This document shows positions 198-54,527 of a DNA stretch of 64,000 nt, piece after piece (the stretch's first letter is position 1; every line of letters begins with the position of its first letter). Both the position numbers and the translations under genes were made by a program. The stretch spans positions 74,994,948 to 75,058,947 of the forward strand of contig OY754464.1 of the NCBI GenBank assembly GCA_963575645.1, read 5' to 3'. This DNA comes from Xanthostigma xanthostigma. Taxonomy: Eukaryota > Arthropoda > Insecta > Raphidioptera > Raphidiidae. The notes beneath the pieces were generated by a model that saw nothing but the letters and a program-made list of their open reading frames with translations, did no database searches and was not told where the DNA came from.

Positions 198-236
198 ACT
201 TCTGAAGAAGGTCCAAATCCGGATTGAAACGTTAAT
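198..236 (+). ncRNA. hammerhead ribozyme-like motif (type I)
   Basis: CTGAAGA (202-208) is followed by a stem II candidate GGTCC/GGATT closed by a short A/T loop, then GAAAC and GTT. This is the order of the hammerhead core, with ACGT as a minimal self-complementary stem III. Stem I is weak (about 2 bp), so activity as a monomer is doubtful. The flanking TTTTTTATATTTTTTAGAT block is shared with the copy at 44094-44133 (minus strand), placing both in one family. Such motifs are known from Penelope-like elements and retrozymes; no protein of such an element is seen here. Confidence 0.6.
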
Positions 237-239
237 GTA

Positions 240-983
240 TTAATTATATATTTTTTTGTTAATATATTGTTTGAAAAATTGGTCAATTATTTTATTTGTT
301 GAAAATAATATAATTGTTACAAGATACAATACTTTACTTCAACAAGAACAAAATACAGGTCTAGCGTTTTGACTTAAAAAGTCGGTGTATCATTTGTCTG
401 CAAGTGAAGGAACAAAATGGTATCCGCTTTGAAAAGTATTTATATAGGGCCGTATTTGAGCATTAATACAAAATAAGAAAAACATAAACGAAATGTTATC
501 GAAAATATATATTATTATTCCAGACAGAAAATTGAATTCGACGTCGTCTTGTAAATAAGCATAAAGCTCAGAGAAAACTGCATATTTCCTGTATGTAGAG
601 TGGAGAGATATAAAGAATAAAATGAGCTCTATCAAACAAGTGTTTTGGGTATAAGAGTTGTCACTCACAAGAACTGTTCAGTCTGCCAGCTGTTGAATTC
701 GTAGTATAGTCTGCCCTCGCTGTGTAAAAGTGCCACCCCAAAACCCTCCTGTTTACCATAATATTCCAATTCGTCGGTCGTTGCGAAAAAGAAATCTGAA
801 TAATTCTTCCACTGCGGTATTCACATGTCTCTGTGACCGTATGGCAAAGTGGCCTGTGGTTGAATCGAGTTCATTTGCTTCGATTTTTTTTGTGCAGTGT
901 AAACAGGCTGTAAATAATTCCAGTCAAAGCATATATTTAAATCTTCTTTTATTAAACGAGTGTCATGATCGATTAATTGCAAA
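240..983. other. no recognisable gene
   Basis: AT-rich sequence without convincing coding content or inverted repeats. Open frames on both strands are short, of low complexity, and match no family I know. Confidence 0.6.
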
Positions 984-1371
984 TCTATATATATAAAATT
1001 CCCGTGTCACAATTTTGGCCGCGCTAATCTTCGAAACCACTGAACCGATTTTAATGAAATTTTGTAAATGTCTTGCTTGATGCAACTTACGCTATAGGAT
1101 AGTTTTTATTAAATATTTTGTACAAAATTACGATGTTTTCTCAAAAAAACTGTTTTAGTTACACGTAAGGACATCTGATAGAATTTACTCAAAGCATTAG
1201 TTCAGAAGCAAACAAAAAAAACTTTTAATATCTAATAGCGACATCTGTTGGAATTCGCTCAAAGCTAATAGTTCAGAAGCAAATCTGATAGAATTTGCTC
1301 AAAGCTATTAGTTCAGACGCTAGGCCGCAAACGAAATACATTTTGCAGAATTATACCTATCGCACCCGGGT
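984..1371 (+). mobile_element. Helitron fragment (TCTATATATATAAAATTC type)
   Basis: It begins TCTATATATATAAAATTC after an A and continues with the GAACCGATTTTAATGAAATT block typical of an abundant insect Helitron family. Three tandem units of about 40 bp (TATTAGTTCAGAAGCAAA cores, about 1190-1320) precede CGCACCCGGGT, where this copy leaves the family consensus about 20 bp before the expected CTAG end. The same tandem block plus an intact end lies at 35131-35437, and an interrupted copy is at 23140-23560. Confidence 0.75.
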
Positions 1372-1439
1372 ATATAATAAACACACGTATTTCTCTCTAT
1401 TAACTGTAAGAAAACAATTTTTTAATGCGCGAGCTGAGA

Positions 1440-1625
1440 GTTGAGACAAAACCATCCGCAATAGCCCGCGCGATAGGCAGCCTTTGTGATATTAAGTCGT
1501 TGGAGGGGGAAGCGGTGAGTGGAAGTTTCGGGTTTAAATCTCGACAGTGACATTGTTAGAAAGTAAATTTTTCTTATATAGTATTGTAATTGTAACAATG
1601 TGAAATCTAATTATTGACACCAATT
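1440..1625 (+). repeat. tRNA-like SINE fragment (family 2)
   Basis: A degenerate Pol III B box (CGGGTTTAAATCTCGACAG) is followed by GACATTGTTnGAAA and a GTAACAATG tail block. The same order recurs at 3515-3645, so this is a dispersed family rather than a tRNA gene. The A box is not clear. Confidence 0.5.
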
Positions 1626-1877
1626 TTTTTTTTATTCAATACAAATGTATTTTAACGAACTACAGTTTTTAATAGCCTAACTTACTCCTATCTGCAGTAA
1701 AAATCCCGTCAAAATCGGTCCAGCAGTCTAGGAGATTAGCCGGAACAAACACACAAAAACAAAAATGTTTTTTGTTTTAAGTACCGTATGTACTTTCATA
1801 TTATGCATTTAGTAAAATTTTGACATTACAAACACTTCAATTTTAGATAGGTATGTGCCTAATTATGTATTTAGTTT

Positions 1878-2543
1878 ATACGGAATGTTTCAAAACATGT
1901 ATTGGAAAATATAGGTTGTGATTTCTTCACTAATTCTAAGAAAAAAAGTTCCTATTTACATGGGTTCGGAAACGAACCGTTTTCAAGATAAAGGGTGTCA
2001 AAGAATTTTTTTTTTATTTTGTTTGTGCTACTTACAAAATTTAGCTTTTGTACACATTTTATAATAAATATTAGCTGCTTTTTAATTGCTTACCCAATTT
2101 TTTTCATATGCCAGTGACGCAGATTTTAGGGTTGCGTAAGGTTTTTTTGCCCCTAATTTCTATGACACTGAGGAAATTAGCATTCTGAAAACACATTTTG
2201 AACCGCCAAAAAACAGCTACTCTTAGTCAAAAGCTGTAACGTGTTGGAGAAAAACACCATTTTATGATAAAAAACACGAAAGAAGTAGCAACTTGATCAC
2301 AAAACTTTTAGTTTACAAAACTAAGCAAATAACATAATAAATAAGAAAAGTCACAACAATTGTTGAAAATGGCCTTCTCCAATTCGAGAAGGCCTGAAGT
2401 TTTGCGTATCGTATTGCATTTTTTGACATCCTGTATCATGAAAACTATGCAGCTTTTGTGGACTTAATAGGAACCGTTTTTCTTAGAATTAGTCAAGGAA
2501 TCATACCCTTTATTTTCCGACATGTTTTAAAACATCCTGTATA
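1878..2543. mobile_element. TIR element, about 670 bp, non-coding
   Basis: The ends are imperfect inverted repeats of about 110 bp. The left contains CGGAATGTTTCAAAACATGT; the right, read in reverse, contains ACAGGATGTTTTAAAACATG. Both carry CTAATTCTAAGAAAAA followed by GGTTC/GTTCC blocks. No transposase is visible. It is probably a MITE; superfamily not assigned. Confidence 0.7.
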
Positions 2544-3148: not shown

Positions 3149-3428
3149 TATAGTATTAGTATAGATTAAGGTTATTTAGATGAGTTTAGTTACAGTTAGT
3201 AATTATAATATATTGTTTATAGTAGCTACTGTTTTTCCACTATTATTTCCTGACGATATAGAAAAGACGTCTATGACTTGGGATTATTTAATGTAAGGAA
3301 ACAATTTCACCTTTGATTCACTCATAGCTCTCTCTACCTTAGACAAGGAAAGTCTATGCTCTCTACTGTATTGGTTCATATCTAGCGTTAACTAATATAA
3401 TTGGCTCTCGCATGATGTGAAAAAAATC

Positions 3429-3498
3429 AGTTACCAATGCTATAAAATTTATAGCATTGGTAACTATCATTCTAATATTTAATATTAGAATGATAGTT
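3429..3498. repeat. two abutting near-perfect palindromes
   Basis: The first (3429-3465) has 18 bp arms around one base, core CTATAAAATTTATAG. The second (3462-3498) has 18 bp arms around one base, core CTAATATTTAATATTAG. They share 4 bp at the junction, so the strand could form two back-to-back cruciforms. Confidence 0.9.
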
Positions 3499-3514
3499 TG
3501 ATAGTTGTGACACT

Positions 3515-3645
3515 GTAGTGTAATGTAACACAGTCCGCCGCGATAGTGGAAAGATTCGGGGTTCGTATCCCGACGGTGACATTGTTTGAAAAAATAAACT
3601 AATTTTTCTATGTTGATGGCATTGTAACAATGGGTGTTTCTTAAC
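3515..3645 (+). repeat. tRNA-like SINE fragment (family 2)
   Basis: A B-box-like GGGGTTCGTATCCCGAC is followed by GGTGACATTGTTTGAAAA and GGCATTGTAACAATG, matching the fragment at 1440-1625. The 5' half of the tRNA-like head is not clear. Confidence 0.5.
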
Positions 3646-4261
3646 AATTGTAGCAAACAGTAGCTACTATAAACAATTAAGGTTATTCATACCTGACGCA
3701 TGGTAGTTCTGAATCTAGTATAAAAGCCATATAAAGCATCGGTTCACCAAACAGAAATGTACGCGTGATTCATTCAGACAGAAAGTGTACAAATCGAATA
3801 AATGACGTTACGTTCGAACACATCTCGCGTCATTACCGGCGTGTTGGAACGCGCATGCGCATACGAGGATGTGTGAAACGCTACGATAATTACGAATTGG
3901 TGCTGTAGATTAGAACGAGAAACTTCCTGGCGGTAAAAAAGTTTCACTCGCCGTGAAGAATCCATTATTCGTTAGTGATTGGTTTCAATTTCTTGAAAGA
4001 GATCAAAATAACACTAACTTTTCTTCCTCTATTTTCGTGTTCTCAATTTAAAAAACCAATCTAGAAAATATCGGTTCCAGATTTAAATTGTGCATTTTTA
4101 CATAAAATTAAATAGTTGGCAAAACCAAAAGTGCACATCCCGCAAGTTTTCCACTGTACATATTATAATGAAAAAAAATTGAGAAAATAGATTTAAAAAA
4201 AAAACATTAAAAATAGACAAAAAATTAAGAATAAAATGGAATAGAAAAATAATTATTACTT

Positions 4262-5585: not shown

Positions 5586-5600
5586 CGTAGTTCGACTTAT

Positions 5601-9476: not shown

Positions 9477-9480
9477 TATA

Positions 9481-10285
9481 TGTTACGCTCAAAGATCGAA
9501 AACGCTCAGTGAGCGGAAAAATAGCTCGCAACGCGTTGTGGTCACAGTAAAACATCCACATGGCGAAATTCGTGTTATGGCTCTAATGAAAACGCGCACG
9601 ACGCATTGTGGCAATCACAGAAAGACCAAATAGCGAAATTCGTGTCGTGGCTGACATGCTATTCGATCTCAACGCGTTGTGGCAATGAAGAAAAGCCATG
9701 ACGCGTATGGAATATTATTTGATTACGACGCACACTACTTTCCTGTATTTTTTCATCATATATTGCCATGTTTCTTGATTCTTCTATAACGTCAGTAATA
9801 ATTTTCACGTTTAAATTCTGTAATTTGTTTAACTGTTCGTCATTTTCTATATTCTTCTCGTTGTTTTGAACATCATTTCATTTTGGTCTTAGAATAGTAA
9901 ATTTAGTCAAGTGATCTTGATAATTCATAATAAATTTATAATTTTTGTCTGGTTCAGACTGCATATCGATTAAATCAACTTGACATCTAGAATTCATGCA
10001 GTCGGATAGAATAGGTTTCACTACTAAATGTGATATGGTTAAAACAATGAATGCTCAGAACGCGTCATGGCTTTTATTCATTGCCACAACGCGTTGAGAT
10101 CGAATAGCATGTCAGCCACGACACGAATTTCGCTATTTGGTCTTTCTGTGATTGCCACAACGCGTCGTGCGCGTTTTCATTAGAGCCATAACACGAATTT
10201 CGCAATGTGGATGTTTTACTGTGACCACAACGCGCTGTGAGCCATTTTTCCGCTCACTGAGCGTTTTCGATCTTTGAGTGTAACA
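9481..10285. mobile_element. TIR element, 805 bp, with about 230 bp terminal repeats
   Basis: It starts TGTTACGCTCAAAGATCG and ends with the inverse (CGATCTTTGAGTGTAACA). The arms stay complementary for about 230 bp and repeat CAACGCGTTG-like and CGAAATTCGTGT blocks. TATA on both sides (9477-9480 and 10286-10289) fits a 4 bp target duplication, though in AT-rich DNA this is weak. The interior (9720-10060) has no open frame of note. The arms are CpG-rich against an AT-rich background. Confidence 0.85.
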
Positions 10286-10289
10286 TATA

Positions 10290-11790: not shown

Positions 11791-12029
11791 GGGAATTATA
11801 AAACGATCGAATAAAAAAAAACTTGGTGACTGATGATGAGAGACTGTTTTAATAACTTGAGATATTAAAATAATAGTTGGGTGACTAAATTAATAAGTAA
11901 GCGACTGAATTACTAAGTGACTGACTAGAATGCCTTCGGTAATTTTGAAGCAGATATCTTCAACCGATTGAGATGAAAATTTGTATACACGTTTAGTTTG
12001 GATGACAATGCATGGTTAGCTGTGTGACG

Positions 12030-12785
12030 TCACTCTAAATCCAATATGGCGGACTTCTAAATATGGCGGACAAATTTTATTATGCTTTCCTACAATATGG
12101 GTATCAAATGAAAGGGCTTGCTGAGAATAACTCGAAAAATAAAGTGACGTTACTCTAAATCCAATATGGCGGGCTTCTAAAGATGGCGGACTAATTTTAT
12201 TATGTTTTCCTACAATATGGGTATAAATGAAAGGGCTTGCTGAGAATAACTCGAAAAATAAAGTGACGTCAGTTTAAATCCAATATGGCGGACTTCTAAA
12301 GATGGCGGACTAAGTTTATTATGCTTTCCTACAATATGGGTATCAAATGAAAGGGCTTGCTGAGAATAACTCGAAAAATAAAATGACGTCAGTCTAAATC
12401 CAATATGGCGGACTTCTAAAGATGGCGGATTAAGTTTATTATGCTTTCCTACAATATGGGTATCAAATGAAAGGGCTTGCTGAGAATAACTCGAAAAATA
12501 AAGTGACGTCACTCTAAATCCAATATGGCGGACTTCTAAAGATGACGGACTAAGTTTTTTATGCTTTCCTACAATATGGGTATCAAATAAAAAGGAAAAC
12601 TGAAAACAACTCGAAATAAAAGTGACGTTACTCTAAATTCAATATGGCGGACTAAGTTTTTTATGCTTTCCTACAATATGGGTATCAAATGAAAGGGCTT
12701 GCTGAGAACAACTCGAAAAATACGATGACGTCATTCTAAATTCAATATGGCGGACTTCTAAAGATGGTGGACTTAGTTTTTTACC
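12030..12785. repeat. minisatellite, about 119 bp period, seven units
   Basis: Units begin GTGACGTCAnTCTAAATCCA and contain ATATGGCGGACTTCTAAAGA and CCTACAATATGGGTATCAAA. Units start near 12031, 12151, 12261, 12381, 12501, 12621 and 12725. Most are highly similar; the last two are shorter or divergent. Long open frames on the minus strand here are only read-through of the repeat. Confidence 0.9.
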
Positions 12786-24176: not shown

Positions 24177-24465
24177 AAAATACACCCAAAACTCCTCGCC
24201 GTCTTGCCTACTAGTTCAGAAGCTAATCTGGCAACTTGATTAACATTAAGAATTTTGATAGAAAAAATAAATTTTAACTTCAAACTGAAAATACATTTTG
24301 ATAGGTGACTATTATTAGGTTAGGAACTTACTTGTTGCAATAAAGTAATGTTCAATTAATATATTTGCAACTTTTTTTTTGTTTTCACGTCCATTATAAT
24401 GATGTTTGTAAATGATAGCGGGAAAGTGGACAGGTACACAAATCAAACACCTTATTTAATTAGCT

Positions 24466-24505
24466 GTGTATAACGTTTTGCTGGTGATCCCAGCTTCTTA
24501 AGATA
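24466..24505 (-). ncRNA. hammerhead ribozyme-like motif, left arm
   Basis: On the minus strand GTAT, a CTTAAGA core, stem II GCTGG/CCAGC, then AAAACGTT and ATAC. Stem I (GTAT/ATAC) and stem II (5 bp) pair perfectly, but the core departs from consensus at two positions, so catalysis is unlikely. Confidence 0.55.
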
Positions 24506-24760
24506 CTAAAAATATAGGTATTTTAAAAAAAGTTTAGTTTTACAATAATGTACAATTAGTTTCTAGGTTATTTACCTTAGTTGAAAGATGTTATTGTTGT
24601 TAACAATAACAACAATAACATCTTATTGTTGTTAACAATAACAACAATACCATCTTATTGTTGTTAACAATAACAACAATACCATCTTTCAGCTAAGGTA
24701 AATAACCTAGAAACTAATTGTACATTATTGTAAAACTAAACTTTTTTTTTAATATTTTCA

Positions 24761-24797
24761 GTATCTGAAGAAGCTAGGATCACCAGCGGAACGTTAT
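24761..24797 (+). ncRNA. hammerhead ribozyme-like motif, right arm
   Basis: GTAT, CTGAAGA (24765-24771), stem II GCT/AGC, GGAACGTT, ATAC. The first core block matches consensus; the second differs by one base. ACGT forms the minimal stem III. Confidence 0.6.
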
Positions 24798-24869
24798 ACA
24801 CAGCTAAATAAGGTGTTTGATTTGTGTTCCTGTTCACTTTCCCGCTATCATTTACAAATATATTTGCAA

Positions 24870-25300
24870 CGTTCATGAACACTGCATTGATATAATATCT
24901 CTATTTATACCTTTTATTTCATGTGTATTACTCTTTAAATCAGAAGTTTGTGTACAAAAACAGTAAAATTCACCTTACTTGAAGGTTCTGTTTGAGATGA
25001 ATTTTTTCCTATTTTAATAATATGACAGCCATTAAATACACGTTCCCCTCAAGAAAATTCCTTTTTCGATGATTTGTATCAGCCCAATCACATATTGTGC
25101 TAATACATATCATTTTATTGCATTTCAAAAAATTCACAATTGCACTGTATACTTTAGGGACTATGGGAAATTATACCCCATCGTCGCCATGCTTTTAAAG
25201 CTCAGCTTATTTAACGGATCCCTATATATAAAATATTTTGCTAAAAATTCGATTCAAATTCGTGATAGTTCTTAAGCATACCATTAATAATACAATGTAG
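24870..25300. other. no recognisable feature
   Basis: AT-rich, with a 68-codon open frame lacking any domain. Confidence 0.6.
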
Positions 25301-29520: not shown

Positions 29521-29564
29521 TTATAGGATTTTTTACAGGTATGTGGACAAATTTAAAGCTTTCA

Positions 29565-31672
29565 CTACACAAGTGGCCAGCACCGCCACTCAAATAAGTG
29601 CCTATCATCGCCGCGATGATTGCCTAGCCCTCCACTGCCGGTCCGATTGTGTGTACGGGCGCACCAGAGACATTTAATATAAGGAGACACAACATCCCAT
29701 TCATAAAACACGATTTGTTTATAATCATACATAGTTTCACAGTTTTAAATAAGTTGGAAAGAGATGGCTTTAAAAAGGCAACGTTGTAACGGAAACTTCT
29801 TCAGCATTATCTTAACCAGGGGCGTATGGTTTTTTCGGGATTATTAAAAACAAGAATTTTTAACGTAAATTAAAAATATATTTTGTGTTAATGGAATATT
29901 CATATAACATTAGAACATACCTAACAATTGTAAAGCCAGGTTTTACAATATTTATTTAATAAAAGGAGCAAAATTTACTTGAATATCAGTTAGAAGTAAT
30001 TAATACTGGAGAGGTTCTAGATGCAATAGAAACTGATTTTACGTTTTATTAAAATAATTTACTCTAGAAGATAAAATTTGGTATGTAATTTGAATCATAA
30101 AGATTTTAACGTGATTTGTTTTATTGCATATAATCTGGTGGTCAAAGCATTTTAATTGCCAAACGTCACTGTGTAGTAAAGTGGCATTTTACTAAACGAT
30201 TTTAAATGCAATAATGTGCCTTTACTAACAAATGAGAATAATAAACTGGCCACGTGCGAGTAGAACTTGCGAGGAGAGGGTATGTACCATTCCGTTTTTT
30301 GTGAAAACTTTAATACTTAAGATTTTCGTTTTAGTTTTCCTGTAAACTATAAGAGGGGGCCCTATATTCGCTATTTTTTCCAAATTTTAGATTCAGTAGT
30401 TTTGGAGTGAAGGATTTCGGTACATATTAAATATTTATTCTTTCTTTTGTACCTGACCGCTAAGGTAGGGCAATTTCCGTATCTATATATTTTTTAGTTA
30501 TTTTGAGTAGGTAATAAAAGACAACATCGGATTTTTCTTATATTATTTATTACATATTATCACAAGAAATTTTTAGACAATAATCAGTCTTAAATATAAT
30601 AATTATTAATGGCATAATATTATTAAAGACTACTGCAAATAAGTTGAGTTTATTTGTTTTACCTGTAAGATAAACGATCAGTAAAAACTGTGGTATTAAA
30701 TTGGGGATCAGCATCTGGTCTTATTTGCCTTCGTCCAGTTAGTTGAGTAGTCATAATATCGCTCCGATCAAAATAATCTGAACAAATTTGAGCAAACTTT
30801 TTGACATGCTGGTTTCGTAAATCCAAAATATCATCCATCTTTGTCTGCGCTCATGATTTACAGGAAAGCTACAACAATATAAATAAACATTAAAGTATAC
30901 TAAAATGTGCTGTAAAAGGTAAACGAAATGTTTACCTTCGAAAAATCTAGGTTTAGTAAATAAGTCCAACAAAATTATCTATTCAGCTTAAAGATGGGAA
31001 ATCTAGCTTAGAATTTAACAATAATTTTTTTAATCCTCCATCAAGATATTTTTTAAAGAAGTGCACATGTAAAATTGTTTTTGCAATAATTTAATAAAAA
31101 TAATTTTTAACTACGTCTACACCACTGCTTAACTTAAAAAAAACATATCTTACTTACCGCCGAAATATCAATCCGGGATTAGAATAATCCATTTTTTTGC
31201 AAACTACGCACTGCCGAACCATTGTAAATTGTCAATACTAATAAAAAAAAATGAAAAATACTTGATTTTCGCAAAATGTCACACAAAGCACATAGCAACA
31301 CTGCAACTTCCGTAATGACAATAAAAGGAATGCATTGAATGAAAAGTGAATCATGCGTTCATGCAGTGTTGTCACATGTATTTTCCAACAGATGCATTTA
31401 ATATAAGTTATATACCCTTCGTCTTCAGCTCGCCGAAGTTTGTCAACGTTGAATTCTGATAGAAACGGTGTATGATCAGGTTAAAATGTAAACAGTTGGA
31501 TCTGCTTATATTAAATATCTCTGGGGCGCACGATTCTGGCCACGCATTCCTTTGATGTACCGACAATCAACCGATTACTGCCGATTACAGGCGATTATGT
31601 CCACGCACCGACGAATATGCCCTCTACACAATCGTGAGTGCCTGTAAGTGGCGGTGCTGGCCACTTGTGTAG
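29565..31672. mobile_element. TIR element, 2.1 kb
   Basis: CTACACAAGTGGCCAGCACC and its inverse mark the ends. Imperfect pairing continues for about 120 bp, to TTTAATATAAG. Outside both ends lies ATGTGGACAAATTTAA in inverted orientation, so the flanks are themselves part of a larger inverted pair. The interior holds only short frames without domains. Class unassigned. Confidence 0.7.
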
Positions 31673-31703
31673 AGGAGCCATAACGCATTAAATGATTGTA
31701 AAT

Positions 31704-31744
31704 TTGCAACGTTTCGTATTTTTATTAATACATCTTCAGGCAAC
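31704..31744 (-). ncRNA. hammerhead ribozyme motif, consensus core
   Basis: On the minus strand: stem I TTGC, CTGAAGA, stem II GTAT/ATAC closed by TAATAAAA, GAAAC, GTT, stem I GCAA. Both conserved core blocks are intact. Stem III is the self-complementary ACGT, typical of hammerheads thought to work as dimers. The site after GTT would be the cut site. Confidence 0.75.
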
Positions 31745-31825
31745 TGAAATAATTACAGTGAAACATAGATTTTAATGTTTATAATTATTCATAATAATAT
31801 ACTATGTTTCATTGTAATTGTTTCA

Positions 31826-31866
31826 GTTGCCGGAAGATGTATCAATAAAAATACGAAACGTTGCAA
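31826..31866 (+). ncRNA. hammerhead ribozyme-like motif, decayed core
   Basis: Mirror of 31704-31744. Stem I TTGC/GCAA, stem II GTAT/ATAC and GAAACGTT are kept, but the first core block reads CGGAAGA, one base from consensus. Confidence 0.65.
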
Positions 31867-32260
31867 ATTTACAATCATTCAACGTGTTAAATTTGTCCAC
31901 ATACCCGTAAAAAATCCTATAAGAATTCTTTACTTTTCACGATTTAATTTTTAGTGAAAATCCCAAGCTCTTTTAATTGAGGAAAGTTATTTAGACAGTT
32001 CTAATCGTTTATTTACACAGTCGAATTTTTTTGACAAATCCCAAATTTATAATGAGCAATCAAAGCAAATAATTATTTTAAATTGGCGGACCCGTTGGCT
32101 ATTAGCCTATTTCTAAGATTTTAATTTTAAGATTAGAATTAGTGACTTTTTTTTCAAAACTCAAAAATGAAAGAGAAAGGTGCTCTGAAAGTTTTATTAA
32201 ATATCAAATTTTGAGATCGGTTCTGGCACTATAGAAATATGTTATGTCATTATAAAATAT

Positions 32261-34435: not shown

Positions 34436-34545
34436 CAATGAATATACCTGTAATATAGGAATATCCATTGAATTTTATAATTTAATAATATTATCCATTG
34501 AATTTTATAACTTAATAATATCCATTGAATTTTATAATTTAAAGG
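34436..34545 (+). repeat. short tandem repeat, three units
   Basis: ATCCATTGAATTTTATAA is repeated three times at about 27-32 bp spacing, directly before the palindrome at 34532-34728. Confidence 0.8.
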
Positions 34546-34728
34546 TCGCTAAAAAAAAGTGTCCAGGGGCGCATAGTCTAGAAACCAATAGATTTTTAGC
34601 TAAAGATATATTTAGCGAGATTTTAGATATTATCTAAAATCTCGCTAAATATATCTGTAGCTAAAAGTTTATTGGTTTTTAGACTATGCGCCTATGGACA
34701 CTTTTTCTTAGCGACCTTTAAATTATAA
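34532..34728. mobile_element. near-perfect palindrome, 197 bp, no spacer
   Basis: Arms of about 98 bp meet at TTAGATATTATCTAA. The ends are TTATAATTTAAAGGTCGC and its inverse. The few mismatches lie in the outer half. Confidence 0.9.
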
Positions 34729-35130
34729 AATAAAACCATTTTCGATCAATTTAACAGAGAACCAAATCCCATAAGGTTTGTGCGAGGTACGCTGTAATTG
34801 TATGGAACCATTCATAAAAAGAATATTGATATTACCGAATTAAAATACATTTGAACTAAAAAATAACTGGAACACAAATTGTAATAATTATAGCCTAGAT
34901 TGCAAAAGAGTTACGAAATATTGAAAGTTGGTTCTGTGTAGAATGAAGGAAAATGAATTTCCGCTGCTATGTCGATAAGGCATTGAATTATACTACAATT
35001 TTACAAATACACATTAAATTATTATCAATTGACACGTCCATCATAAATTGGGGTACGTTTCCTGCTGTAGTTATATAGGTTATAATAATTGTAGGGTTTT
35101 AACCACATCCCTGTGCCAATACTCACGATA

Positions 35131-35482: not shown

Positions 35483-35815
35483 ATGAATGAATAAATTAGG
35501 AGTTATGGCACGCTATCCTAGAAGAATTTTTGTGCTTCCCCTTGTCCCGGATCTAGTCCTCCAATAGTTTGGATCTTCTGATGAACTCCAGAAGATTGCT
35601 AACTAGATTGTCCTGAGGAATTACTCCGCTCTCGTCAATGTATCCAAAGATGGTTGTTCTCCTGTTGGCTAGGGGTTCGCATTCGAACAGTAAATGGTTG
35701 GCTGTTTCGTCCTCCATTTCGCAATATCGTAAACGTGATACAATGTAAATTTCTGCGATATGTTTTTTTAGTGTTTTCATATTTATCCGACAATGATGCC
35801 ATATAAACAGTGGCG
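35483..35815 (-). pseudogene. LINE RNase H / C-terminal fragment with (ATTC)n tail
   Basis: The minus strand reads ...RLRYCEMEDETANHLLFECE, PLANRRTTIFG and NLLEFIRRSKLL, then stops near 35553. The C...E-E/D-ET-x-HLL-x-C-x2-L...R order is the Cys/His tail after RNase H in I/R1/Jockey-type LINEs. A short 3' UTR ends in four ATTC units (35483-35495). 5' truncated at the hAT insertion. Confidence 0.7.
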
Positions 35816-36836
35816 TAGCTACCCAGGGGCTAGGCGGGGCAGTGCCCCGGGGCCCTCAAGCTCAAGGGGCCCTCGAATCCTTACCAGAAAATCTCGATAG
35901 AATTGAACTTTTGAAAATTTCTCCCATTTTCAAAATAAATATGACAGGTTGCAACCCGACTTTAATCATGGCAACTCAGTTGAGAGAAATTCGAAAGTTA
36001 TACCCAGGGAATTCCCCTAAATTCTTTCTGTGGGTTGGCAATGTTGTCAATTTGACGGATAGCGATATGTGCGTTTTATTATTCATCGATATGCGTTTTA
36101 TTGTGAATTAGAGTCAAGATTTGTTTTTGAGAACGGTTAAAAAATTAATGCTGTATCAGGAGTAAGTAAGTTAATGTCAAGAAACTTTTTAGTACTACTG
36201 GTCAATATAGTGGTTCAATTTTATTTGATTTTACCACATTATTTGAGTCAGTATCAATAGAAATATTTTATCCAGAAATACTTGCAGAAAGCTGACTAAA
36301 AAACTTGTCAATTTTGGGCAATTTTTGTTTACTATCTTCTCTTTCTTGGCGTTGTTTGCGTTTAAATGCACCACTGGGTTTCTTCTTTTTGTCCCTAATT
36401 TTAGTTTTCTAAATGTATAGATTTGACACGATTTATTGACTGAATTTAACCGAAGTCATTGATACTTTTGCAAAAACTAAAGCTAGAAAAAGATTGTAAA
36501 TATAAGTAATTGTTATTTAGTCAGTTGGTAGGTCCGACTTTTATATAATAAACCCTTGAATCTTTTCTATTTCGTATTATTGCCCAAATCTACACCAAGT
36601 ATTAATTGTAATTTATGTTGTTACTGTTTAATATTTTTATTACCTGCCCTGCAATGCACAAAAAAGAGCTGATCATATCAATAAGAGCTTTATCATCGAT
36701 GATAAAGTAGTTTAGCATTTTTAAAGTATTTGTATATTTAATATTTTTACTTGATAAAACCTGCCCAGTTTAGATAACAGTGGGGCCCCATTTTTTTATT
36801 TGCCCCAGGGCCCTTGGTTACCTAGCTACGCCACTG
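35808..36836. mobile_element. hAT element, 1029 bp, with perfect 8 bp target duplication
   Basis: CATATAAA flanks both ends. The TIR is CAGTGGCGTAGCTA; GC-rich subterminal GGGGCCC blocks (TGCCCCGGGGCCCTC / TGCCCCAGGGCCC) stand out from the AT-rich interior. The interior frames have no hAT domain, so it is non-autonomous. It separates two LINE pieces of opposite sense. Confidence 0.92.
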
Positions 36837-37208: not shown

Positions 37209-37857
37209 GACGTGATAACGTCTTATAAATTGATGAATCACCAATCTTATAAATTGATAAAACACCGGCTGCATGCACGAAAAAGTGTAACGTTCATAAA
37301 TCCTAACGTTCGTAACGCGTAACGTTCCGCCTGACCCTATGCGTGCTTTTTGCTAATTTCTCGCTCAATTTAAATCAGATCGGTTTGAAACCAGTCTTAA
37401 ACGAAAGAGGAGAACATTTTACATAGATTTCGTATAACAGAATTTGCCTAAACAGTTTTTTTATACAAATTTATATAGAAAAATAGCTGTATAAATGCAA
37501 TGTTGTCTAATGCATGGCGCGACGCGGTCGGTCGTCTTTGTTTGCCGTACATGAAAATTAGAAGATAACGTATGTCTTGTCTTAACATGAAAACGGCTGC
37601 ATTTCTAATGTTTAATTCAATTTTTTGACATTAGTATTTTGTGAAATGCAACGCCTTCTAAGTTAAGTATTGGAATAACTAATTATTATTAGAACATAAT
37701 ACTTTGACAGTTGCAAACGTCACTTTTGACATTTCTTATCATTCCGACACCAAGGATAAGCGGATTGAAACCAAATTTTGGGAGGTTTAGGTTATGTATT
37801 ACGGAATACGTTATCACGTAAAACTATCGTCCGTAAACCGACTTTACAGACAACCAA
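37209..37857 (+). mobile_element. repeat family A, 649 bp copy
   Basis: Starts GACGTGATAACGTC in a T-run and ends CAGACAACCAA before another T-run. The interior carries the family C blocks AACGAAAGAGGAGAACATTT and CGACACCAAGGATAAGCGGA, linking families A and C. It lies in a LINE 3' UTR. Confidence 0.85.
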
Positions 37858-40084: not shown

Positions 40085-40715
40085 ACCATAAAAGCCTCAG
40101 GCAATTTAAAAGTCTTGAAGCCCTGATCATGAAAATATTTTTTTCTAAACGCTGGTCGTAAACAAAACATTGGTAAAGCTTCCTTTTAAATTGTTCCTCA
40201 GCCAATTTTCCCCCAATGTCCAAATAATATAAATTTTGAGTTATGCCGAAAGTTTATCAAGTTTCTTAATAAAATTAAGAATTCTATTTATTTTAAATTG
40301 CAGATTTATAATTTTGTGTACGTTTTTTATTTCCAAGAAAGACATTTTTATTAAGAGATAAATAACACGTATACAGCAGCAATAACTACATTATTTTATG
40401 TTGAACTTTTCAGTACGTTTTGCTTGCCGTTTTCTTTAAGTTTTCCCGAATAATGGAATTATAAATAACTCCCACTTTTAAAGGAGATATACTTTGATGT
40501 AAAAAGTACATTATTAAATTCCGGAGGATTTAAATAATATTTGTCCTCTCAATTCAATTAGAACCAATGAAAATATTCTAGATATCAAAATGGAATTATA
40601 TAATAAAAAATTGAATTTAAATGCAACGTTTTTTTTAATACCATGTTATTAATTACAAATAGAAACGAAAGGAGAGAATATGAAATAAAAATAATTTTTA
40701 TGTAAAAAATATTGT
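40085..40715. other. no recognisable feature
   Basis: AT-rich. A 131-codon frame on the minus strand (40585-40980) runs into the Tigger-like element and has no domain. Confidence 0.55.
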
Positions 40716-43115: not shown

Positions 43116-43604
43116 ACTATGATATTTTGTTATTCGTTTGCATGGTTCAGTTGAAGGCCACAGATATTGAAATTATGTAGGTACTCAAAATACTGTATTA
43201 GAGATAAGATTTCTTAATCAGTAGATCACGAAAAACATGTTTAATATGGTAAAAATGGAGTAAATTTAAAAGCATGCAACTGTTTGAAACTTTATTTAAT
43301 TTACAAGATGGCAGTGATGATGAACCTAGAAATGAAATTAAAGATGATGCCAGAGGGTAAACGTAGATGATTTACAGCTGGCTTTAAGTTAATTTAATAA
43401 GTACAAGAGAACACGGTTCAAATCATTCTTCGGGTGGTTTTGAAACTTGAAAAACGGAAAGTTTTTCTTAATTTGTTTTGATGTGAACATACCGTTCATA
43501 TTTACAATTAGTTCAACAAAAACTAGCAATAGCTTTATAATAAGCATACTAGTGTTTGCATGTATCTTCATATTTATTAGATATCGTGTCCATCGATAAT
43601 AATT

Positions 43605-43740
43605 AATAAGAAAAAATTCGCAGGTTTGTGGACAATAGTTGTATTTATAAATGTACTTGAAAAAGTCTAAATTTATAGACGAAACGTCGTACATTTATAA
43701 ATACAACTATTGTCCACAAACCTGCGAATTTTTTCTTATT
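43605..43740. mobile_element. perfect 52 bp inverted repeat enclosing a hammerhead-like core
   Basis: Arms 43605-43655 and 43689-43740 are perfect reverse complements (TTGTGGACAATAGTTGTATT inside). The 33 nt between them is exactly the hammerhead-like core, so the arms form a greatly extended stem I. Confidence 0.9.
43651..43694 (+). ncRNA. hammerhead ribozyme-like motif with extended stem I
   Basis: Stem I GTAC/GTAC continues into the 52 bp arms. The first core block reads TTGAAAA (two changes from consensus), stem II is GTCT/AGAC, then GAAACGTC. Architecture is clear; the changed core makes catalysis unlikely. Confidence 0.65.
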
Positions 43741-43878
43741 ATTTATTATCTTCATATTGTTTTAAAAAAATCGATATTTTTACACAGACCTCCGACAATA
43801 ATTAATTTGATTTCTTTTGCAATAGTTTATATTTATTTATTTTTCTTTTGATTTAGCTTGATCCATCAAGTTGTCTAT

Positions 43879-44635
43879 ACAGGCTGTATCAGTGAAAACT
43901 GTACATAGGGAAAACTCCATTGTGCAAATTAGTTAGGGTCAACGATTACTTTGGCCACATATGAGAATGGGTACCATGGTAACGCTGACTAACCATTATT
44001 TAATAACAATAATTGCTAATCAAATAAATAAAATTATCGACCAATTTTTTCAGACTGTATATCGAAAAAAAAATTATAATTCAATAATTCAGTAGATGAC
44101 GTTTCGGTCCGGATTTAGATCTTTTTCAGAAATAATCTAAAAAATATAAAAAGGAATTAATATCTACTTATTTTCTAATAGAATTAAGATAATAATTTTA
44201 TTTATTTGAAGAGTTCTATTCAGACGTTAATCTAAGATTTGAATGATTGCTAATAATGAATAATTAGAAAAATCAGTTAAAATAAATTAAAAGAATTTAT
44301 TTTTATTAATGAAACATTTTTTTAATTAGAAAATATTTTTTTAATTAATAATTAAACCACACACAGTTTAAATAAAAAATTAATGCGAATGTTCAAATAA
44401 ACATCTATTTTGATTAAGCAGTGGCTTAAAAACTTTGTTTCACTTTGTGTAACATTACAGGAGTCACACTGAAACATACTTCGGCGATTTTGTCTTTAAG
44501 TTCATCCAGATTGTGCCACCATCTCGAAGTTTCATTATGGAAACCATGGTAACGACCTCTGAATAGAGGACAAAGCAATCTCTGATCTTAACTAATTTGT
44601 ACTGTGTACTTTTCCCTATGTACGGTTTCCTGTAT
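43879..44635. mobile_element. TIR element, 757 bp, hosting a hammerhead-bearing insertion
   Basis: ATACAGGCTGTATCAGTGAA and CTGTACATAGGGAAAA at the left pair imperfectly with the right end (CTTTTCCCTATGTACGG...CCTGTAT). CCATGGTAACG occurs near both ends. The middle (about 44030-44400) belongs to the hammerhead family also seen at 1-240. Confidence 0.65.
44094..44133 (-). ncRNA. hammerhead ribozyme-like motif
   Basis: On the minus strand: CTGAAAA (one change), a weak stem II around TAAATCCGGA, then GAAACGTC. The upstream TTTTTATATTTTTTAGAT matches the locus at 198-236. Confidence 0.55.
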
Positions 44636-49031: not shown

Positions 49032-49472
49032 ATTTAGGTATTGCAATTTATTACTTATATAATGATGTTAACTTACTATGTAACTATTACATTATTTAAC
49101 GATTCAACACACCCTCTCTCACACTTTAACCTACATATAGTGTCTTACTCGCACTCACGTATAATATTCCCGGCTCACCTGACAGGTAAAAAGTCCGACC
49201 GAAATGGTTAGTCCTTTAAAAAAAAACTTTATGAAGTAAAACTTCTTTACGCACGCTTGACTTGGGGAGTAAGCTGGTGAATGCCTGACGAGAGATTTAC
49301 GGAAGTGTGATCGGGCGAGGCGAACGGAAGTTGAGAAGGAGATATAAGTTAGTGAAGATAGATACTTCATTGGCTAGTGGCGCCATCAGGTGGCCGAAAC
49401 AAATACTTCACTGGCTAGTGGCGTCATTAGGTGGCCGAAAATATAAGCAGTACTAACAATAGAATATATAGA

Positions 49473-50708
49473 TGTCGTAGTCATAATGCAAAATTAGGCT
49501 TTTTACAAAATGTCTACGCATTTTATAAAAAGCCGGCAAAACGCGAGCGAACAATGCAGTTTCCGTTATGACTATACCAATTCAGGCAAATTGATAAAAT
49601 GCCGGCAAAATGTGAACAGAAGAACGTGTATCTCGTTCTGACGCATTATTTTCAGGCATTTTACAATTTACCAACAGCGATGTAGTCAAAACGCACAACA
49701 GTGATGGACCTGAAAAATGGTCTCTACAAATTAGGTACCTCTAAAGGAATTCTCAAAACTTGGTTTTCCAGAAATGATATTCAAGAATCCTTAGTCGGTT
49801 TTGAAGATGAAGTTCCTGATACACTAATAACCGTAAGAGAGGCAGTTGTACATCATTCACGATTTGGGGGTCAAGGGTTTCAAAAATGTTTCTGTAAGGC
49901 TAGTAGCAAACAGTGCAATTCAAAGAAATGTGCTTGCTTTAAAAATAACAATTTATGCTCGTCCAAATGTCATGGAAGTTCGACATGCAGTAATAAGTAG
50001 GTTGTGTTGACATCTCCATAAAATGTTAAAATATTTATATTTTTAACGATTGTTTATTATCTTATACTATTTTCTATATTTCATTTACCATTCCAACTCA
50101 TAAATGTGGAATGGTACTAGTTTAGGTCAAAATTCGGTTCAAATAATTATTTCGCTCATATGAGCTTATCTAGAAATTCTGAACTTGTTTATGATATAAA
50201 ATATTATTTATTCAAATTGAATTTTATATTAGGTATCGTAATATAACCTCAGCTGTTACTCTTAAACCGCCAAAAACTGGACCCTTTACCTTAGGTATTT
50301 ATTTAGGTAGTTACTTTATTTCGTGCATTACTTTAAGATTACCTAACTGAAAGTTTTTATAGGTATGAAGTGTTTATTTAGATTTATATAATAAAGAAGT
50401 TTATTGTTTTTTGTGTCATTGTGCCATTTTATGAAATACTTACCTAGTACCTATCTCCCTAATTTTATTATTTTTTTCTCCCGCTTACGTTATGACTACA
50501 TCGCTGTTGGTAAATTGTAAAATGCCTGAAAATAATGCGTCAGAACGAGATACACGTTCTTCTGTTCACATTTTGCCGGCATTTTATCAATTTGCCTGCA
50601 TTGGTATAGTCATAACGGAAACTGCATTGTTCGCTCGCGTTTTGCCGGCTTTTTATAAAATGCCTAGACATTTTGTAAAATGCCTAATTTTGCATTATGA
50701 CTACGACA
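49473..50708 (+). mobile_element. Ginger-like DNA transposon derivative, 1236 bp
   Basis: TIRs of 219 bp, about 97 percent alike by eye, start TGTCGTAGTCATAATGCAAA and end in the inverse (TG...CA). A 4 bp duplication TAGA flanks it (49469-49472, 50709-50712). Ends of TGT...ACA with 4 bp duplications fit Ginger elements, whose transposase is a retroviral-type integrase. The centre keeps only the tail of such a protein (49704-50000). Arms repeat GGCATTTTA and GCCGGCAAAA blocks. Confidence 0.85.
49704..50000 (+). pseudogene. C-terminal remnant of a KRBA2/Ginger-like integrase protein
   Basis: 98 codons from ATG 49704 to TAG 49998. The first half (LYKLGTSKGILKTWFSRNDI, then ESLVGFEDEVPDTLITVREA) looks like the region after an integrase core. 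The second half is a Cys-rich block: KCFCKASSKQCNSKKCACFK, then NNNLCSSKCHG and TCSNK. A C-x-C...C-x3-C-x-C-x6-C-x3-C-H tail of this kind closes KRBA2-like/Ginger-type proteins in many arthropods. The DDE catalytic core is absent, so this is an internal-deletion derivative. It is an open frame just inside the left TIR and may be translated, but it cannot transpose the element by itself. Confidence 0.6.
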
Positions 50709-51136
50709 TAGACACATACAATAGACACATACTTTACTTGCCAGTGGCGCTACCGGGTGATAGAAAAAAGTTTTGTAAATCTACTTTAAATAATAATTCA
50801 TAAAGATTTACACTTAAAATCCAACGAGAGCTAAGTAATTGCAATGTATTACTTTTGTTTTCATTATCTTTATGTTTATATTTCTTTCTTCTTACTGTTC
50901 ATTTCGCTCTTGAACAATTTTATAAATTATTATTTTGTTCAATACATTAAATATTCTACGTTTAAAGTGAATAAAATTGTAAGTTCATTTTAAAGTTCAT
51001 ATTTTATGAATTTTCGGGTGAATAATAACAAATTATTACCTACTTCAATCGTGTGGTCTAAAGCACACTCGTTTTTTTTTAGGTATAAATATTTTTCTGT
51101 CTTAATTTCAAATATCTAAAATCTAAAACTCAAATA

Positions 51137-51670: not shown

Positions 51671-51674
51671 TATA

Positions 51675-52395: not shown

Positions 52396-52399
52396 TTAA

Positions 52400-53041
52400 G
52401 CGGCCTACACACCTTGATACAAGCTGCGATGCAGGCATCGACTCTATGTTTCATGAAACTTGCATCAGTTGCATAAACGCCTACTTAATAAATCGAAACC
52501 TATTGCGATGCCTGAATCGACTCCATGTTCATGCAACACAAGAACAGTAGCTTAAGGTACGTTTTGCCATCACCAGTTTATACTTTATACTCCATAAAAG
52601 AAAAAGGAAATGGTCAAAAAGATGGTTTATAGAAAGACAGCGTTATTCAAATGCTTTATTGGAAGAGCTAAAAGTACATATTTTGTAGTCCAAAGACACG
52701 TATGCAGATGATAAATGTTTATGAACTCTTCCCAAAATACACGATCACTTTCCATCATGGAATTTACACACACAAACAACAGAGTAACCTCTAAAATGGC
52801 GCGGGAAAATAAATTAATATCGTCTTGGCATCGACGCAATTCTACGCACGCTGAAACTTGCATCAGCATCGCCGACTCGGCGTCGTGGCTCGCCGACCAA
52901 AATGGGATTCCAGACTCTGCATCGCTGCAAGCCGCAACTGATGCCAAATACGTGATTCAGTACTACACACACTGCTACTTGCATCATGAAACATAAGAGT
53001 CGATGCCTGCATCGCAGCTTGTATCAAGGTGTGTAGGCCGC
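52400..53041. mobile_element. TTAA-flanked TIR element, 642 bp
   Basis: TIR of about 57 bp: GCGGCCTACACACCTTGATA, then CAAGCTGCGATGCAGGCATC. TTAA on both sides (52396-52399, 53042-53045). The two long overlapping frames are on opposite strands and show no transposase motif. Part of a second copy lies at 61319-61605. piggyBac-like by target; the GGCC-rich end also recalls Harbinger. Confidence 0.85.
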
Positions 53042-53261
53042 TTAAGGTCGCGTACCCTGCAACAAAGCCCTGTAACATAACTGTGTTACGTTACGTAATT
53101 TAAGGAGCGTAACGCCACAGTTCAATTCATTCGAACAGTAAAGTAGGTCATATTATGCCTAAGCAGCTGAACGAATTATAGAAAAACTTGATTTTGTTCG
53201 GTCAATTTGAATTTTGGTTCAAAGAGAGCAAAAAAAAAAGCACGGGTCCCCCTCATAGTTT

Positions 53262-53410
53262 AAAAGAGGATGGAGTTTGGGTGGGAGTTCTTTAAAAAAC
53301 AATTACGGGGTCGTGTCGATGCGATGGCGTTTCCTTTTTGTGCAGTGAAAAGGGGAAGGAGTCTGGGGGAGTTCTTTAAAAAACAATTACGGGGTCGTGT
53401 ATACAAAGTG
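53262..53410 (+). repeat. tandem duplication, about 88 bp
   Basis: GGAGTTCTTTAAAAAACAAT followed by TACGGGGTCGTGT occurs twice. It is related in inverse sense to the minisatellite at 12786-13045. Confidence 0.8.
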
Positions 53411-53419
53411 AGATTAGTA

Positions 53420-54190
53420 GGTAATATAGTAATTCTACACCAGTTGTTATGACGTGTATATGTTATTTCTGATTGGTTAGATTAAAAAAATGACAGTGAA
53501 AGACGAAAAGTTTTTAAGTATCTTTGAGAAAATTTGTGAATAATCCGCAAAGTTTTTTTTTTGGAACGTCAAAATTTAGCGTTTTCTACGACTTAAAAAA
53601 AAGTCAAAATTTATCGAACTGGCCCATAGATCAACCTGCCTCATTAATTTTAAAAAATCGCTAAAACATGTTTTATTAGACTCAAATTTTTATAACGTAG
53701 ATTTTTAAATTTTTAATTTTTTTATATGACGCAATTTACATTCTTTGGAATTTTACAAGGTTATATTATTATTATTAGATATCTGCGTTGTATGAATGGC
53801 AAGACATTATCTGTATCAGCAATTAGGTACACAATATCAATAATTTCTCACCATAATTAATACATGATTTTTTCTAAATTGGAAATATGAAATTATTGGC
53901 GTGGATAAAAACATATTGTCCTGTACATTTTCAGCAACGTAATCTCTTAATTAAAATACGCCCGGTAGTCATTATTAACAGATATAATCACCGTTCGAAA
54001 TACTGATTGAATTTCGCGGAATATCGCAATCAATCTGGACGTTTCTTTATGTAGATTGAAATAAATTGGTTGACACAGGTAAACAGCATTTAAAATCAAT
54101 GAACGTGATGATCGTTTTTCGATTATCTGTCAGCTTTTTTCTTAAATTATGACATTGACATTGTTGTTAGTATAGAAGTTTTGTTCCAAA
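53420..54190. other. no recognisable feature
   Basis: AT-rich, no coding or repeat signal that I can support. Confidence 0.6.
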
Positions 54191-54195
54191 AATAT

Positions 54196-54527
54196 GTATT
54201 GAAGGAGATTTATTTGATTGAGGAACATAGAGAAATAAGCTTTACCAGAGTATCGCTTATGGCCAACGTTTCGAAAAATATATTTTCATCATCAGGGCCC
54301 CAATGCAAGTTAAGATGGTTAATTGTGTAAATTATTGTAATATACTTACATGATCATTTATTATGAATTTCGACAGTTTTTTTTGAATTTAAAAATATCA
54401 TAAAACAGTTTTTTAATAAAATTGTTCTGTCCAATGTGCAAATAAATATCAGTACAATATTTATTTGCACATTGGACAGAACAATTTTATTAAAAAACTG
54501 TTTTATCTCCTTCAATTGACTTTATTA
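54196..54527. mobile_element. hammerhead-bearing element with a perfect 49 bp inverted repeat
   Basis: Short ends ATTGAAGGAGAT and its inverse (ATCTCCTTCAAT) bound the unit. It holds a consensus hammerhead (54258-54304) and, 100 bp on, an inverted repeat with perfect 49/49 arms (54401-54449, 54457-54505; 7 nt spacer). Confidence 0.8.
54258..54304 (-). ncRNA. hammerhead ribozyme, complete consensus core
   Basis: On the minus strand: stem I GGCC, CTGATGA, stem II GAAAA/TTTTC closed by ATAT, GAAAC, GTT, stem I GGCC. Every conserved core position matches, making this the best ribozyme candidate in the window. ACGT forms the self-complementary stem III, suggesting dimeric action. Both stem I strands are GGCC, itself palindromic. 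Confidence 0.8.

What the first reader, a model, noticed from the sequence alone, without database searches (positions are those of the whole stretch)
198..54304. Eight hammerhead-like motifs at six loci in 64 kb, all with ACGT stem III
Motifs at 198, 24466, 24761, 31704, 31826, 43651, 44094 and 54258 share CTGANGA-stem II-GAAACGTY order but have different stem II sequences, so they belong to several families. Known carriers are Penelope-like elements and retrozymes. Here no reverse transcriptase or GIY-YIG protein accompanies them, and the units are short, non-coding and foldback-shaped. This may be an undescribed group of hammerhead-bearing non-autonomous elements.
Basis: partly seen in the sequence, partly recalled or inferred. 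Interest (0 to 1): 0.85.

Follow-up and report, generated by a model that had tools for sequence, protein, structure and literature searches.

The report
Ribozyme-bearing foldback retroelement relics
Eight weathered copies of a small RNA-cutting motif in a 64-kb stretch of animal-like DNA sit in short insertions, several of them palindromes, that look like non-coding leftovers of Penelope-type jumping genes, which would give scattered motifs of this sort a probable origin.

Summary
All eight motifs are at the stated places. A covariance model built from five finds the other three (E 1.5e-5 to 2.7e-4); the next match in the window is at E 0.41. Both stems covary. They are minimal type I hammerheads with a palindromic ACGT in place of stem III and one extra base before stem II. 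Only three of eight keep the full CTGANGA/GAAAC core.

They form five sequence families at six loci, plus a seventh degenerate copy at 40123. The anatomy argues for Penelope-like (PLE) insertions rather than an unknown class: two head-to-head palindromes with outward ribozymes, one hairpin with the ribozyme at its tip, element ends 62-78 nt past the predicted cleavage site in four of five families, and, in three of five elements tested, direct repeats of 14, 12 and 9 bp with a 20-36-nt tail on one side only (0 of 18 other palindromes reach 9 bp). These are published PLE traits (PMC3846280, passages). No reverse-transcriptase or GIY-YIG domain was found near them.

Best reading: ORF-less inverted-pLTR insertions made by a PLE in trans, with self-priming; in one element the inverted repeat starts exactly at ribozyme stem I. 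New variant of a known kind. The host genome was not available.

The parts
1..171 (.). Palindrome of element A1, cut by the window start; upstream side of the ribozyme at 202
   Evidence: self-inverted match 90.2% over 173 columns
197..238 (+). Hammerhead-like motif A1 (core 202-233): CTGAAGA, stem II of 5 pairs with two G-U, GAAACGTT; stem I poor
   Evidence: 47.5 bits (in the model)
24358..24371 (+). Element B, left copy of 14-bp direct repeat AATATATTTGCAAC (candidate TSD)
   Evidence: random positions with this geometry at >=14 bp: 0.23%
24372..24401 (-). Element B one-sided tail, 30 nt
24402..24861 (.). Element B palindrome, 460 bp, two outward-pointing hammerhead motifs
   Evidence: halves 91.4% identical
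24467..24507 (-). Hammerhead-like motif B left (core from 24502): CTTAAGA...AAAACGTT, stem I 4 bp, stem II 5 bp
   Evidence: E 2.7e-4 (held out)
24591..24688 (.). Element B junction: about three 32-bp tandem units, near-palindromic (24585-24624 is 90% self-inverted)
24760..24800 (+). Hammerhead-like motif B right (core from 24765): CTGAAGA...GGAACGTT, stem I 4 bp
   Evidence: E 3.6e-5 (held out)
24857..24870 (+). Element B, right copy of the 14-bp direct repeat
29521..29590 (-). Paralogous repeat lacking element C (empty-site comparison)
31681..31889 (.). Element C palindrome, 209 bp, two outward-pointing hammerhead motifs
   Evidence: halves 88.3% identical
31703..31744 (-). Hammerhead motif C left (core 31739-31708), complete core, stem I 4 bp, stem II 5 bp
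31826..31867 (+). Hammerhead-like motif C right (core from 31831), CGGAAGA in place of CTGAAGA
40120..40200 (+). Element E2: degenerate second copy of family E; shared sequence starts 3 nt before the core (core at 40123)
   Evidence: 79% identity over 81 columns
43563..43574 (+). Element D, left copy of 12-bp direct repeat TATCTTCATATT (candidate TSD)
   Evidence: 0.38% of random positions
43575..43594 (-). Element D one-sided tail, 20 nt
43595..43750 (.). Element D palindrome: 62-bp arms, 61 of 62 identical, ending exactly at the ribozyme core
43652..43693 (+). Hammerhead-like motif D at the hairpin tip; core TTGAAAA (conserved C3 and G8 changed, so probably dead)
43747..43758 (+). Element D, right copy of the 12-bp direct repeat
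44012..44020 (+). Element A2, left copy of 9-bp direct repeat ATTGCTAAT (candidate TSD)
   Evidence: 1.8% of random positions
44020..44209 (.). Element A2, second copy of family A, bounded by 18-bp exact inverted repeats (44020-44037 / 44192-44209)
   Evidence: 3 of 300 random positions reach 18
44093..44134 (-). Hammerhead-like motif A2 (core 44129-44098): CTGAAAA...GAAACGTC; stem I poor
   Evidence: 48.5 bits (in the model)
44210..44245 (+). Element A2 one-sided tail, 36 nt
44246..44254 (+). Element A2, right copy of the 9-bp direct repeat
54198..54516 (.). Element E1, tentative limits from a 12-bp inverted repeat (54198-54209 / 54505-54516); contains hairpin 54400-54506
   Evidence: 26 of 300 random positions reach 12, so weak
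54260..54300 (-). Hammerhead motif E1 (core 54295-54265), complete core, stem I GGCC/GGCC, stem II 5 bp
   Evidence: E 1.5e-5 (held out)

Best explanation
The eight motifs are minimal type I hammerhead ribozymes of the Penelope-like (PLE) kind, in different states of decay. They lie in short, ORF-less insertions that look like solo or inverted PLE pseudo-LTRs. Proposed working: a transcript carrying the ribozyme is copied by a PLE reverse transcriptase-endonuclease supplied in trans, starting some 25-80 nt past the ribozyme's cleavage site; the copy (or an antisense RNA) folds back and primes on itself, giving a head-to-head inverted repeat with a tail on one side, joined to the genome with a 9-14-bp target duplication or none. 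The ribozyme would cut transcripts as a dimer, two ACGU stem III halves pairing with each other. Shown here: the motif, its covariation, the foldback anatomy, the direct repeats with one-sided tails, and the absence of recognisable coding nearby. Inferred: ribozyme activity, dimer cleavage, trans-mobilisation by a PLE, and self-priming (in element D at ribozyme stem I itself).
For: Motif beyond chance and one class. Cores matching one fixed pattern elsewhere rarely have stems: 2 of 121 matches in 120 viral-collection stretches have both stems >=3 bp, while the two window motifs that fit that pattern (31739-, 54295-, read from the sequences) both do. Outward-pointing ribozymes in both arms of B and C, a single ribozyme at the tip of D. 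Element ends lie 62-78 nt past the predicted cleavage site in families A, B, D and E, 27 in C (E's end is tentative). Direct repeat touching one end with a 20-36-nt tail at the other: B 14 bp, D 12 bp, A2 9 bp, that is 3 of 5 elements tested; 0 of 18 other palindromes reach 9 bp, the best being 8. A paralogous copy of the flanks lacks C. Published PLE anatomy: inverted pLTR, 31-bp tail optional on one inverted pLTR, TSD 8-10 bp or none, palindromes at head-to-head junctions read as self-priming (PMC3846280, passages). In one PLE the ORF starts at stem II and the cut is 26 bp past the start codon (PMC11167929, passages); family E has an ATG at about that place with 25 nt to the predicted cut.
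Against: No PLE protein remnant was found, so PLE kinship rests on anatomy and ribozyme type. No direct tandem pLTR: the nearest same-strand motifs are 7066 and 7237 bases apart. A review holds that eukaryotic dimer hammerheads need a tandem arrangement (PMC6466107, passages); in B and C the two copies are inverted, so a dimer would have to form between two transcripts. In the one PLE studied in vitro, ribozyme cleavage was not needed for insertion and no reads ended at the cleavage site (PMC11167929, passages). C shows no TSD and E no convincing one. The tail geometry was defined after seeing B and D, so only A2 and the controls test it. The tails do not resemble each other beyond chance (P 0.12, 0.52, 0.16). 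Foldbacks without ribozymes are common in this window. Five of eight cores are mutated.
Confidence: 0.6

Rival explanations
1. They are decayed fragments of ordinary autonomous PLEs: only the inverted pLTR ends survive, the ORF having been lost by truncation or deletion. Nothing non-autonomous ever moved.
For: Same anatomy as for the main reading; PLEs are 5'-truncated on insertion (PMC8969392, passages); solo pLTRs without other PLE sequence or TSDs are reported (PMC3846280, passages).
Against: Elements B, D and A2 have both ends with direct repeats and no recognised coding near them, which suggests that they inserted at about this size rather than eroding to it.
Confidence: 0.25
2. They are MITE-like DNA transposons (foldback elements) that captured a ribozyme motif.
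For: Inverted-repeat shape; many other foldbacks in the window without ribozymes.
Against: Direct repeats of 14, 12 and 9 bp, of unequal length and separated from one end by a tail, do not suit a cut-and-paste transposase; five families all carry the same ribozyme architecture.
Confidence: 0.1
3. Retrozymes: non-autonomous elements spreading through circular RNAs cut out by type I hammerheads.
For: Short, non-coding and hammerhead-bearing; animal retrozymes use type I hammerheads (PMC7229834, passages).
Against: Those are direct tandem repeats with canonical hammerheads; here no second same-strand motif lies within 7 kb of any motif, and helix III is minimal.
Confidence: 0.04
4. Chance matches to a short consensus in AT-rich palindromic DNA.
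For: The core is short; viral and bacterial sequences match it by chance.
Against: Shuffles, held-out recovery and covariation.
Confidence: 0.01

Closest known systems
Penelope-like elements with inverted pLTRs (for example Pen2a and Pen3a of Adineta vaga, PMC3846280, passages)
   Same: Head-to-head inverted ends, palindromes at the junction, one-sided tail (31 bp there, 20-36 here), TSD 8-10 bp or none there, 9-14 bp or none here; arms of 62 to about 230 bp here against pLTRs of 181-218 bp there
   Different: No ORF, no reverse transcriptase, no GIY-YIG, no direct tandem pLTR; whole insertions of about 180-490 bp
Minimal type I hammerheads of PLEs and Terminons (Cervera and de la Pena 2014; Lunse et al. 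2017; neither paper held, seen only as cited in PMC7761336, PMC6466107, PMC6155905)
   Same: Stems I and II, no real stem III, here a palindromic ACGT that could pair between two copies
   Different: Whether the extra base before stem II and the CTTAAGA, TTGAAAA or CTGAAAA core variants occur there I could not check
Metazoan non-LTR retrozymes (PMC7229834, passages)
   Same: Short non-coding carriers of type I hammerheads, PLEs suspected as helper
   Different: Direct tandem repeats (RNA circles of ~170-400 nt) with canonical hammerheads, against inverted repeats with minimal ones here

Membership tests
Minimal type I hammerhead ribozyme | CUGANGA and GAAA core with stems I and II in the right order | tested here: met
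   Architecture recovered in 8 of 8 by the model, full core in 3 of 8; stem I absent or poor in 202+ and 44129-; covariation
Minimal type I hammerhead ribozyme | Self-cleavage, alone or as a dimer | not testable with these tools
   No biochemical test; D lacks C3 and G8
Penelope-like element (autonomous) | ORF with PLE reverse transcriptase and, in most, GIY-YIG endonuclease | tested here: not met
   Pfam at E<=0.1: neither in 111 ORFs >=68 aa of the window, of which 46 near the motifs rescanned, nor in 150 of 249 shorter ORFs near motifs, the 150 being >=44 aa; so not filed as an autonomous PLE
Penelope-like element (insertion anatomy) | Inverted pLTR head to head with palindromic junction | tested here: met
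   B and C; D with junction at stem I; A1 cut by window start; not clear in A2 and E
Penelope-like element (insertion anatomy) | One-sided tail with TSD | tested here: met
   3 of 5 elements tested (B, D, A2); C and E1 not; A1 and E2 not tested
Penelope-like element (insertion anatomy) | Direct tandem pLTRs | tested here: not met
   No second same-strand motif within 7 kb
Penelope-like element (insertion anatomy) | Autonomous partner with matching ends in the same genome | not testable with these tools
   No genome held for the window
MITE / DNA transposon | TSD of constant length abutting both terminal inverted repeats | tested here: not met
   Best direct repeat of >=5 bp abutting both ends: 5 bp in E1, none in the other 4 tested
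Retrozyme | Direct tandem repeats each with a hammerhead | tested here: not met
   tandem-repeat scan shows none around the motifs except the junction array of B
Retrozyme | Circular RNA of unit length | not testable with these tools
   No RNA data

The most novel reading that the evidence does not exclude
The foldback is itself the mobile unit: a class of ORF-less, PLE-dependent elements, many families per genome, in which the hammerhead's own stem I is the hairpin that primes second-strand synthesis. The ribozyme sequence would then serve twice, as an RNA cutter and as a snap-back primer, which would explain why element D's 62-bp arms stop exactly at the core, why E1 and E2 share sequence only from stem I onward, and why minimal hammerheads lie scattered by the thousand in animal non-coding DNA.
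Probability: 0.18. Interest if true: 0.75.

Novelty: new variant of a known kind. Interest (0 to 1): 0.5.

Why it matters
The role of minimal hammerheads in PLEs is called unknown, and most such motifs are said to lie dispersed in non-coding DNA (PMC7761336, passages). Here dispersed motifs get a testable identity: short inverted-pLTR insertions with tails and target duplications. If general, a simple scan (ribozyme plus foldback plus tailed TSD) would tell inserted units from debris, and the stem I junction of element D points to a test of how PLE copies become inverted repeats.

Tried and rejected
Rfam at gathering and E<=10: no hammerhead family; I take the microRNA-family matches as what long hairpins give. 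Host genome search: none held. L072 (two copies within a long repetitive ORF) and L001 (phage-like, about 300 nt from an ORF that looks GIY-YIG-like to me, on recall and no call) were looked at and taken as chance; L085 was not followed. The covariance model was run on 80 of these 120 stretches. Exact-family patterns for C and E in the viral collection: 0 matches each; A, B and D were not tried. Prokaryote genome scan: 12 stretches; the best by the model (L122, E 7e-5) lies inside a coding gene, which shows that an E of that size on stretches picked for the core is no proof. Tail similarity between families: not above chance. Splice-acceptor-like YAG shortly upstream of the core: 5 of 9 sites reach a threshold met by 5.9% of random positions, but these are only three families and no donor site was sought. 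12-bp inverted repeat of E: 26 of 300 random positions do as well. Alignment A3 of all eight had the stem II gap misplaced, so the model was built from the five equal-length motifs. For the palindrome controls I picked 18 by hand from the list, leaving out nested ones, the smallest and some loosely paired ones; one of the 18 (54400-54506) lies inside element E1. The 'tight' set behind P=0.007 (3 of 7 loci inside palindromes covering 6.2% of the window) was also picked by hand. A first, pre-check version of this report was held back; on checking I corrected counts, located the zf-RVT hit, and lowered the main reading from 0.70 to 0.60 and the first three rivals from 0.35, 0.12 and 0.06 to 0.25, 0.10 and 0.04, because results against dimer action and ribozyme need had been left out and the odds did not add up.
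Full report
Setting. The window is 33% GC, has no complete ORF above 152 aa by the bacterial start rule and no genome is held for it; it reads like intergenic DNA of an animal, which is inference. It is rich in dispersed repeats and foldbacks.

The observation. The eight motifs are present. In ribozyme sense each runs: stem I (4 bp or more in six, poor in 202+ and 44129-), CTGANGA or a variant, one extra A or T, stem II starting with G, GAAACGTH or a variant, stem I. Exact cores with both stems occur twice (31739-, 54295-) against none in 60 dinucleotide-preserving shuffles; with one mismatch allowed per half there are 5 against a mean of 0.15. The five motifs of equal length were aligned without gaps. 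Their nine pairs form in 86.7% of cells against 59.4% in shuffles (0 of 500 as high), with 7 pairs changed on both sides (19 of 500 shuffles as high), and sliding the partner by 1-3 columns drops pairing to 26-44%; five sequences from three families (A, C, D) are a thin basis, but the direction is clear. The covariance model from these five, run without filters, returns them plus the three left out (54295- E 1.5e-5, 24765+ E 3.6e-5, 24502- E 2.7e-4) and then nothing better than E 0.41.

Families and decay. A: 202+ and 44129- (75% over 152 columns, positions 158-300 against 44166-44023). B: 24502- and 24765+. C: 31739- and 31831+. D: 43657+. E: 54295- and a degenerate 40123+ (79% over 81 columns; missed by the model). 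Full core: 202+, 31739-, 54295-, 3 of 8. The rest carry CTTAAGA with AAAAC (24502-), GGAAC (24765+), CGGAAGA (31831+), TTGAAAA (43657+), CTGAAAA (44129-). Predicted monomer folds show just stems I and II in 4 of 8 (31739-, 24765+, 24502-, 43657+); 54295- keeps both stems but pairs part of the core as well; 31831+, 202+ and 44129- fold otherwise.

Anatomy. B (24402-24861) and C (31681-31889) are palindromes with a ribozyme in each arm pointing outward. D (43595-43750) is a hairpin whose 62-bp arms, 61 of 62 identical, stop exactly at the ribozyme core, so that the arms are a hugely extended stem I. A1 has a palindrome (1-171) upstream, cut by the window edge. A2 has 18-bp exact inverted repeats at 44020-44037 and 44192-44209; 3 of 300 random positions do as well. 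E1 has only a weak 12-bp inverted repeat (26 of 300). From the predicted cleavage site to the element end the distance is 66 and 70 (B), 62 (D), 67 (E1, tentative end), 78 (A2), 67 (A1, end of homology with A2), and 27 in both arms of C.

Target duplications and tails. A search for direct repeats around the ends of five elements gave, for B, AATATATTTGCAAC (14 bp), for D, TATCTTCATATT (12 bp), and for A2, ATTGCTAAT (9 bp). In all three, one copy touches one end of the element and the other lies 20-36 nt beyond the opposite end, leaving a one-sided tail. Random positions with that geometry reach 14, 12 and 9 bp in 0.23%, 0.38% and 1.8% of 6000 draws; of 18 hand-picked palindromes none reaches 9 bp, two reach 8; C and E1 do not show it. 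I defined the geometry after seeing B and D, so its support comes mainly from A2 and the controls. For C a paralogous repeat at 29521-29590 lacks the insert: 26 of 26 and 35 of 36 flanking bases match, with 8 bases between them in the empty copy, so C is most simply an insertion without clear TSD; with two copies a deletion in the other cannot be excluded.

What it is. In Adineta vaga, Penelope copies carry an inverted pLTR, an optional 31-bp tail at the 3' end of one inverted pLTR, TSDs of 8-10 bp or none, and palindromes at head-to-head junctions, which the authors read as self-priming on an antisense template; they also report solo pLTRs and unrelated sequences carried between pLTRs (PMC3846280, passages). 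In an Anolis PLE the ORF starts at stem II of the hammerhead and the cut is 26 bp past the start codon (PMC11167929, passages); in family E an ATG lies at about that place, 25 nt before the predicted cut, though the frame stops after 10 codons in E1 (read). That paper also found that cleavage was not needed for insertion in vitro and saw no reads ending at the site, which speaks against a needed role. PLE hammerheads lack helix III and may cleave as dimers (PMC7761336, PMC6466107, passages; the primary papers were not held). The same set of traits here makes PLE-mediated insertion the best account.

Coding. Of 111 ORFs of >=68 aa over the window, Pfam at E<=0.1 gave 18 families: hAT dimerisation (8.9e-10), YnhH-like in three ORFs (best 4.5e-4), a zf-RVT hit (0.0084) and weaker ones, no RT domain proper and no GIY-YIG. 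The zf-RVT hit is at 35556-35855 minus, 17.2 bits against a cut-off of 27.5, 3.7 kb from the nearest element. The 46 of these ORFs nearest the motifs gave five weak matches (E 0.02 or worse), none to a mobile element. 150 of 249 shorter ORFs near the motifs gave 15 weak families, the only mobile-element one being rve_2 at 0.051. Old, frameshifted remnants under about 44 aa would be missed.

Mechanism. Shown: motif, covariation, insertion anatomy, tailed repeats. Inferred: a PLE enzyme in trans copies a ribozyme-bearing RNA from a start site past the ribozyme, the product folds back and primes itself, and the insertion is sealed with or without TSD. D suggests that stem I itself can be the priming hairpin, since its arms begin at the stem I pair next to the core; E1 and E2 also share sequence only from 3 nt before the core. 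Dimer cleavage through ACGU is expected from the literature, not tested; because B and C carry their copies inverted and no same-strand neighbour lies within 7 kb, it would need two transcripts.

Novelty. Seven searches of the paper library bear on this. Their listings, which for searches show only part of the papers found, name no paper on ribozyme-bearing foldbacks of this sort; 'palindrom' was searched as a whole word and so tested nothing. The library lacks most subscription papers, the two key PLE-hammerhead papers among them. I file it as a new variant of a known kind.

Noticed in passing
24502-, 24765+, 31739-, 31831+, 202+, 44129- (families A, B, C): A T-rich stretch ending in TAG or CAG lies 3-14 nt upstream of the ribozyme core, like a 3' splice site; 5 of 9 sites pass a threshold met by 5.9% of random positions (24502- just misses it).
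   Followed up: partly
window, for example 9477-10289, 23552-24185, 28110-28635, 34529-34731, 49472-50709, 54400-54506: Many foldbacks without any hammerhead motif; inverted-repeat arms of all kinds cover 11.5% of the window.
   Followed up: partly
37301-37783 and 63140-63622: Inverted repeat of 483 nt at 99%, 25 kb apart, suggesting a recently moved family.
   Followed up: no
12024-12783: Tandem array of a 120-bp unit containing ATATGGCGGAC.
   Followed up: no
window, one of the 111 ORFs, not among the 46 nearest the motifs nor the 10: hAT transposase dimerisation domain, E 8.9e-10; the ORF was not pinned down.
   Followed up: partly
L001 3005-3046 (- strand): Hammerhead-like match (E 2.5e-5) in a phage-like contig, about 300 nt from an ORF at 3347-3883 that looks GIY-YIG-like on recall; the contig was picked for the core, so this may be chance.
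   Followed up: partly
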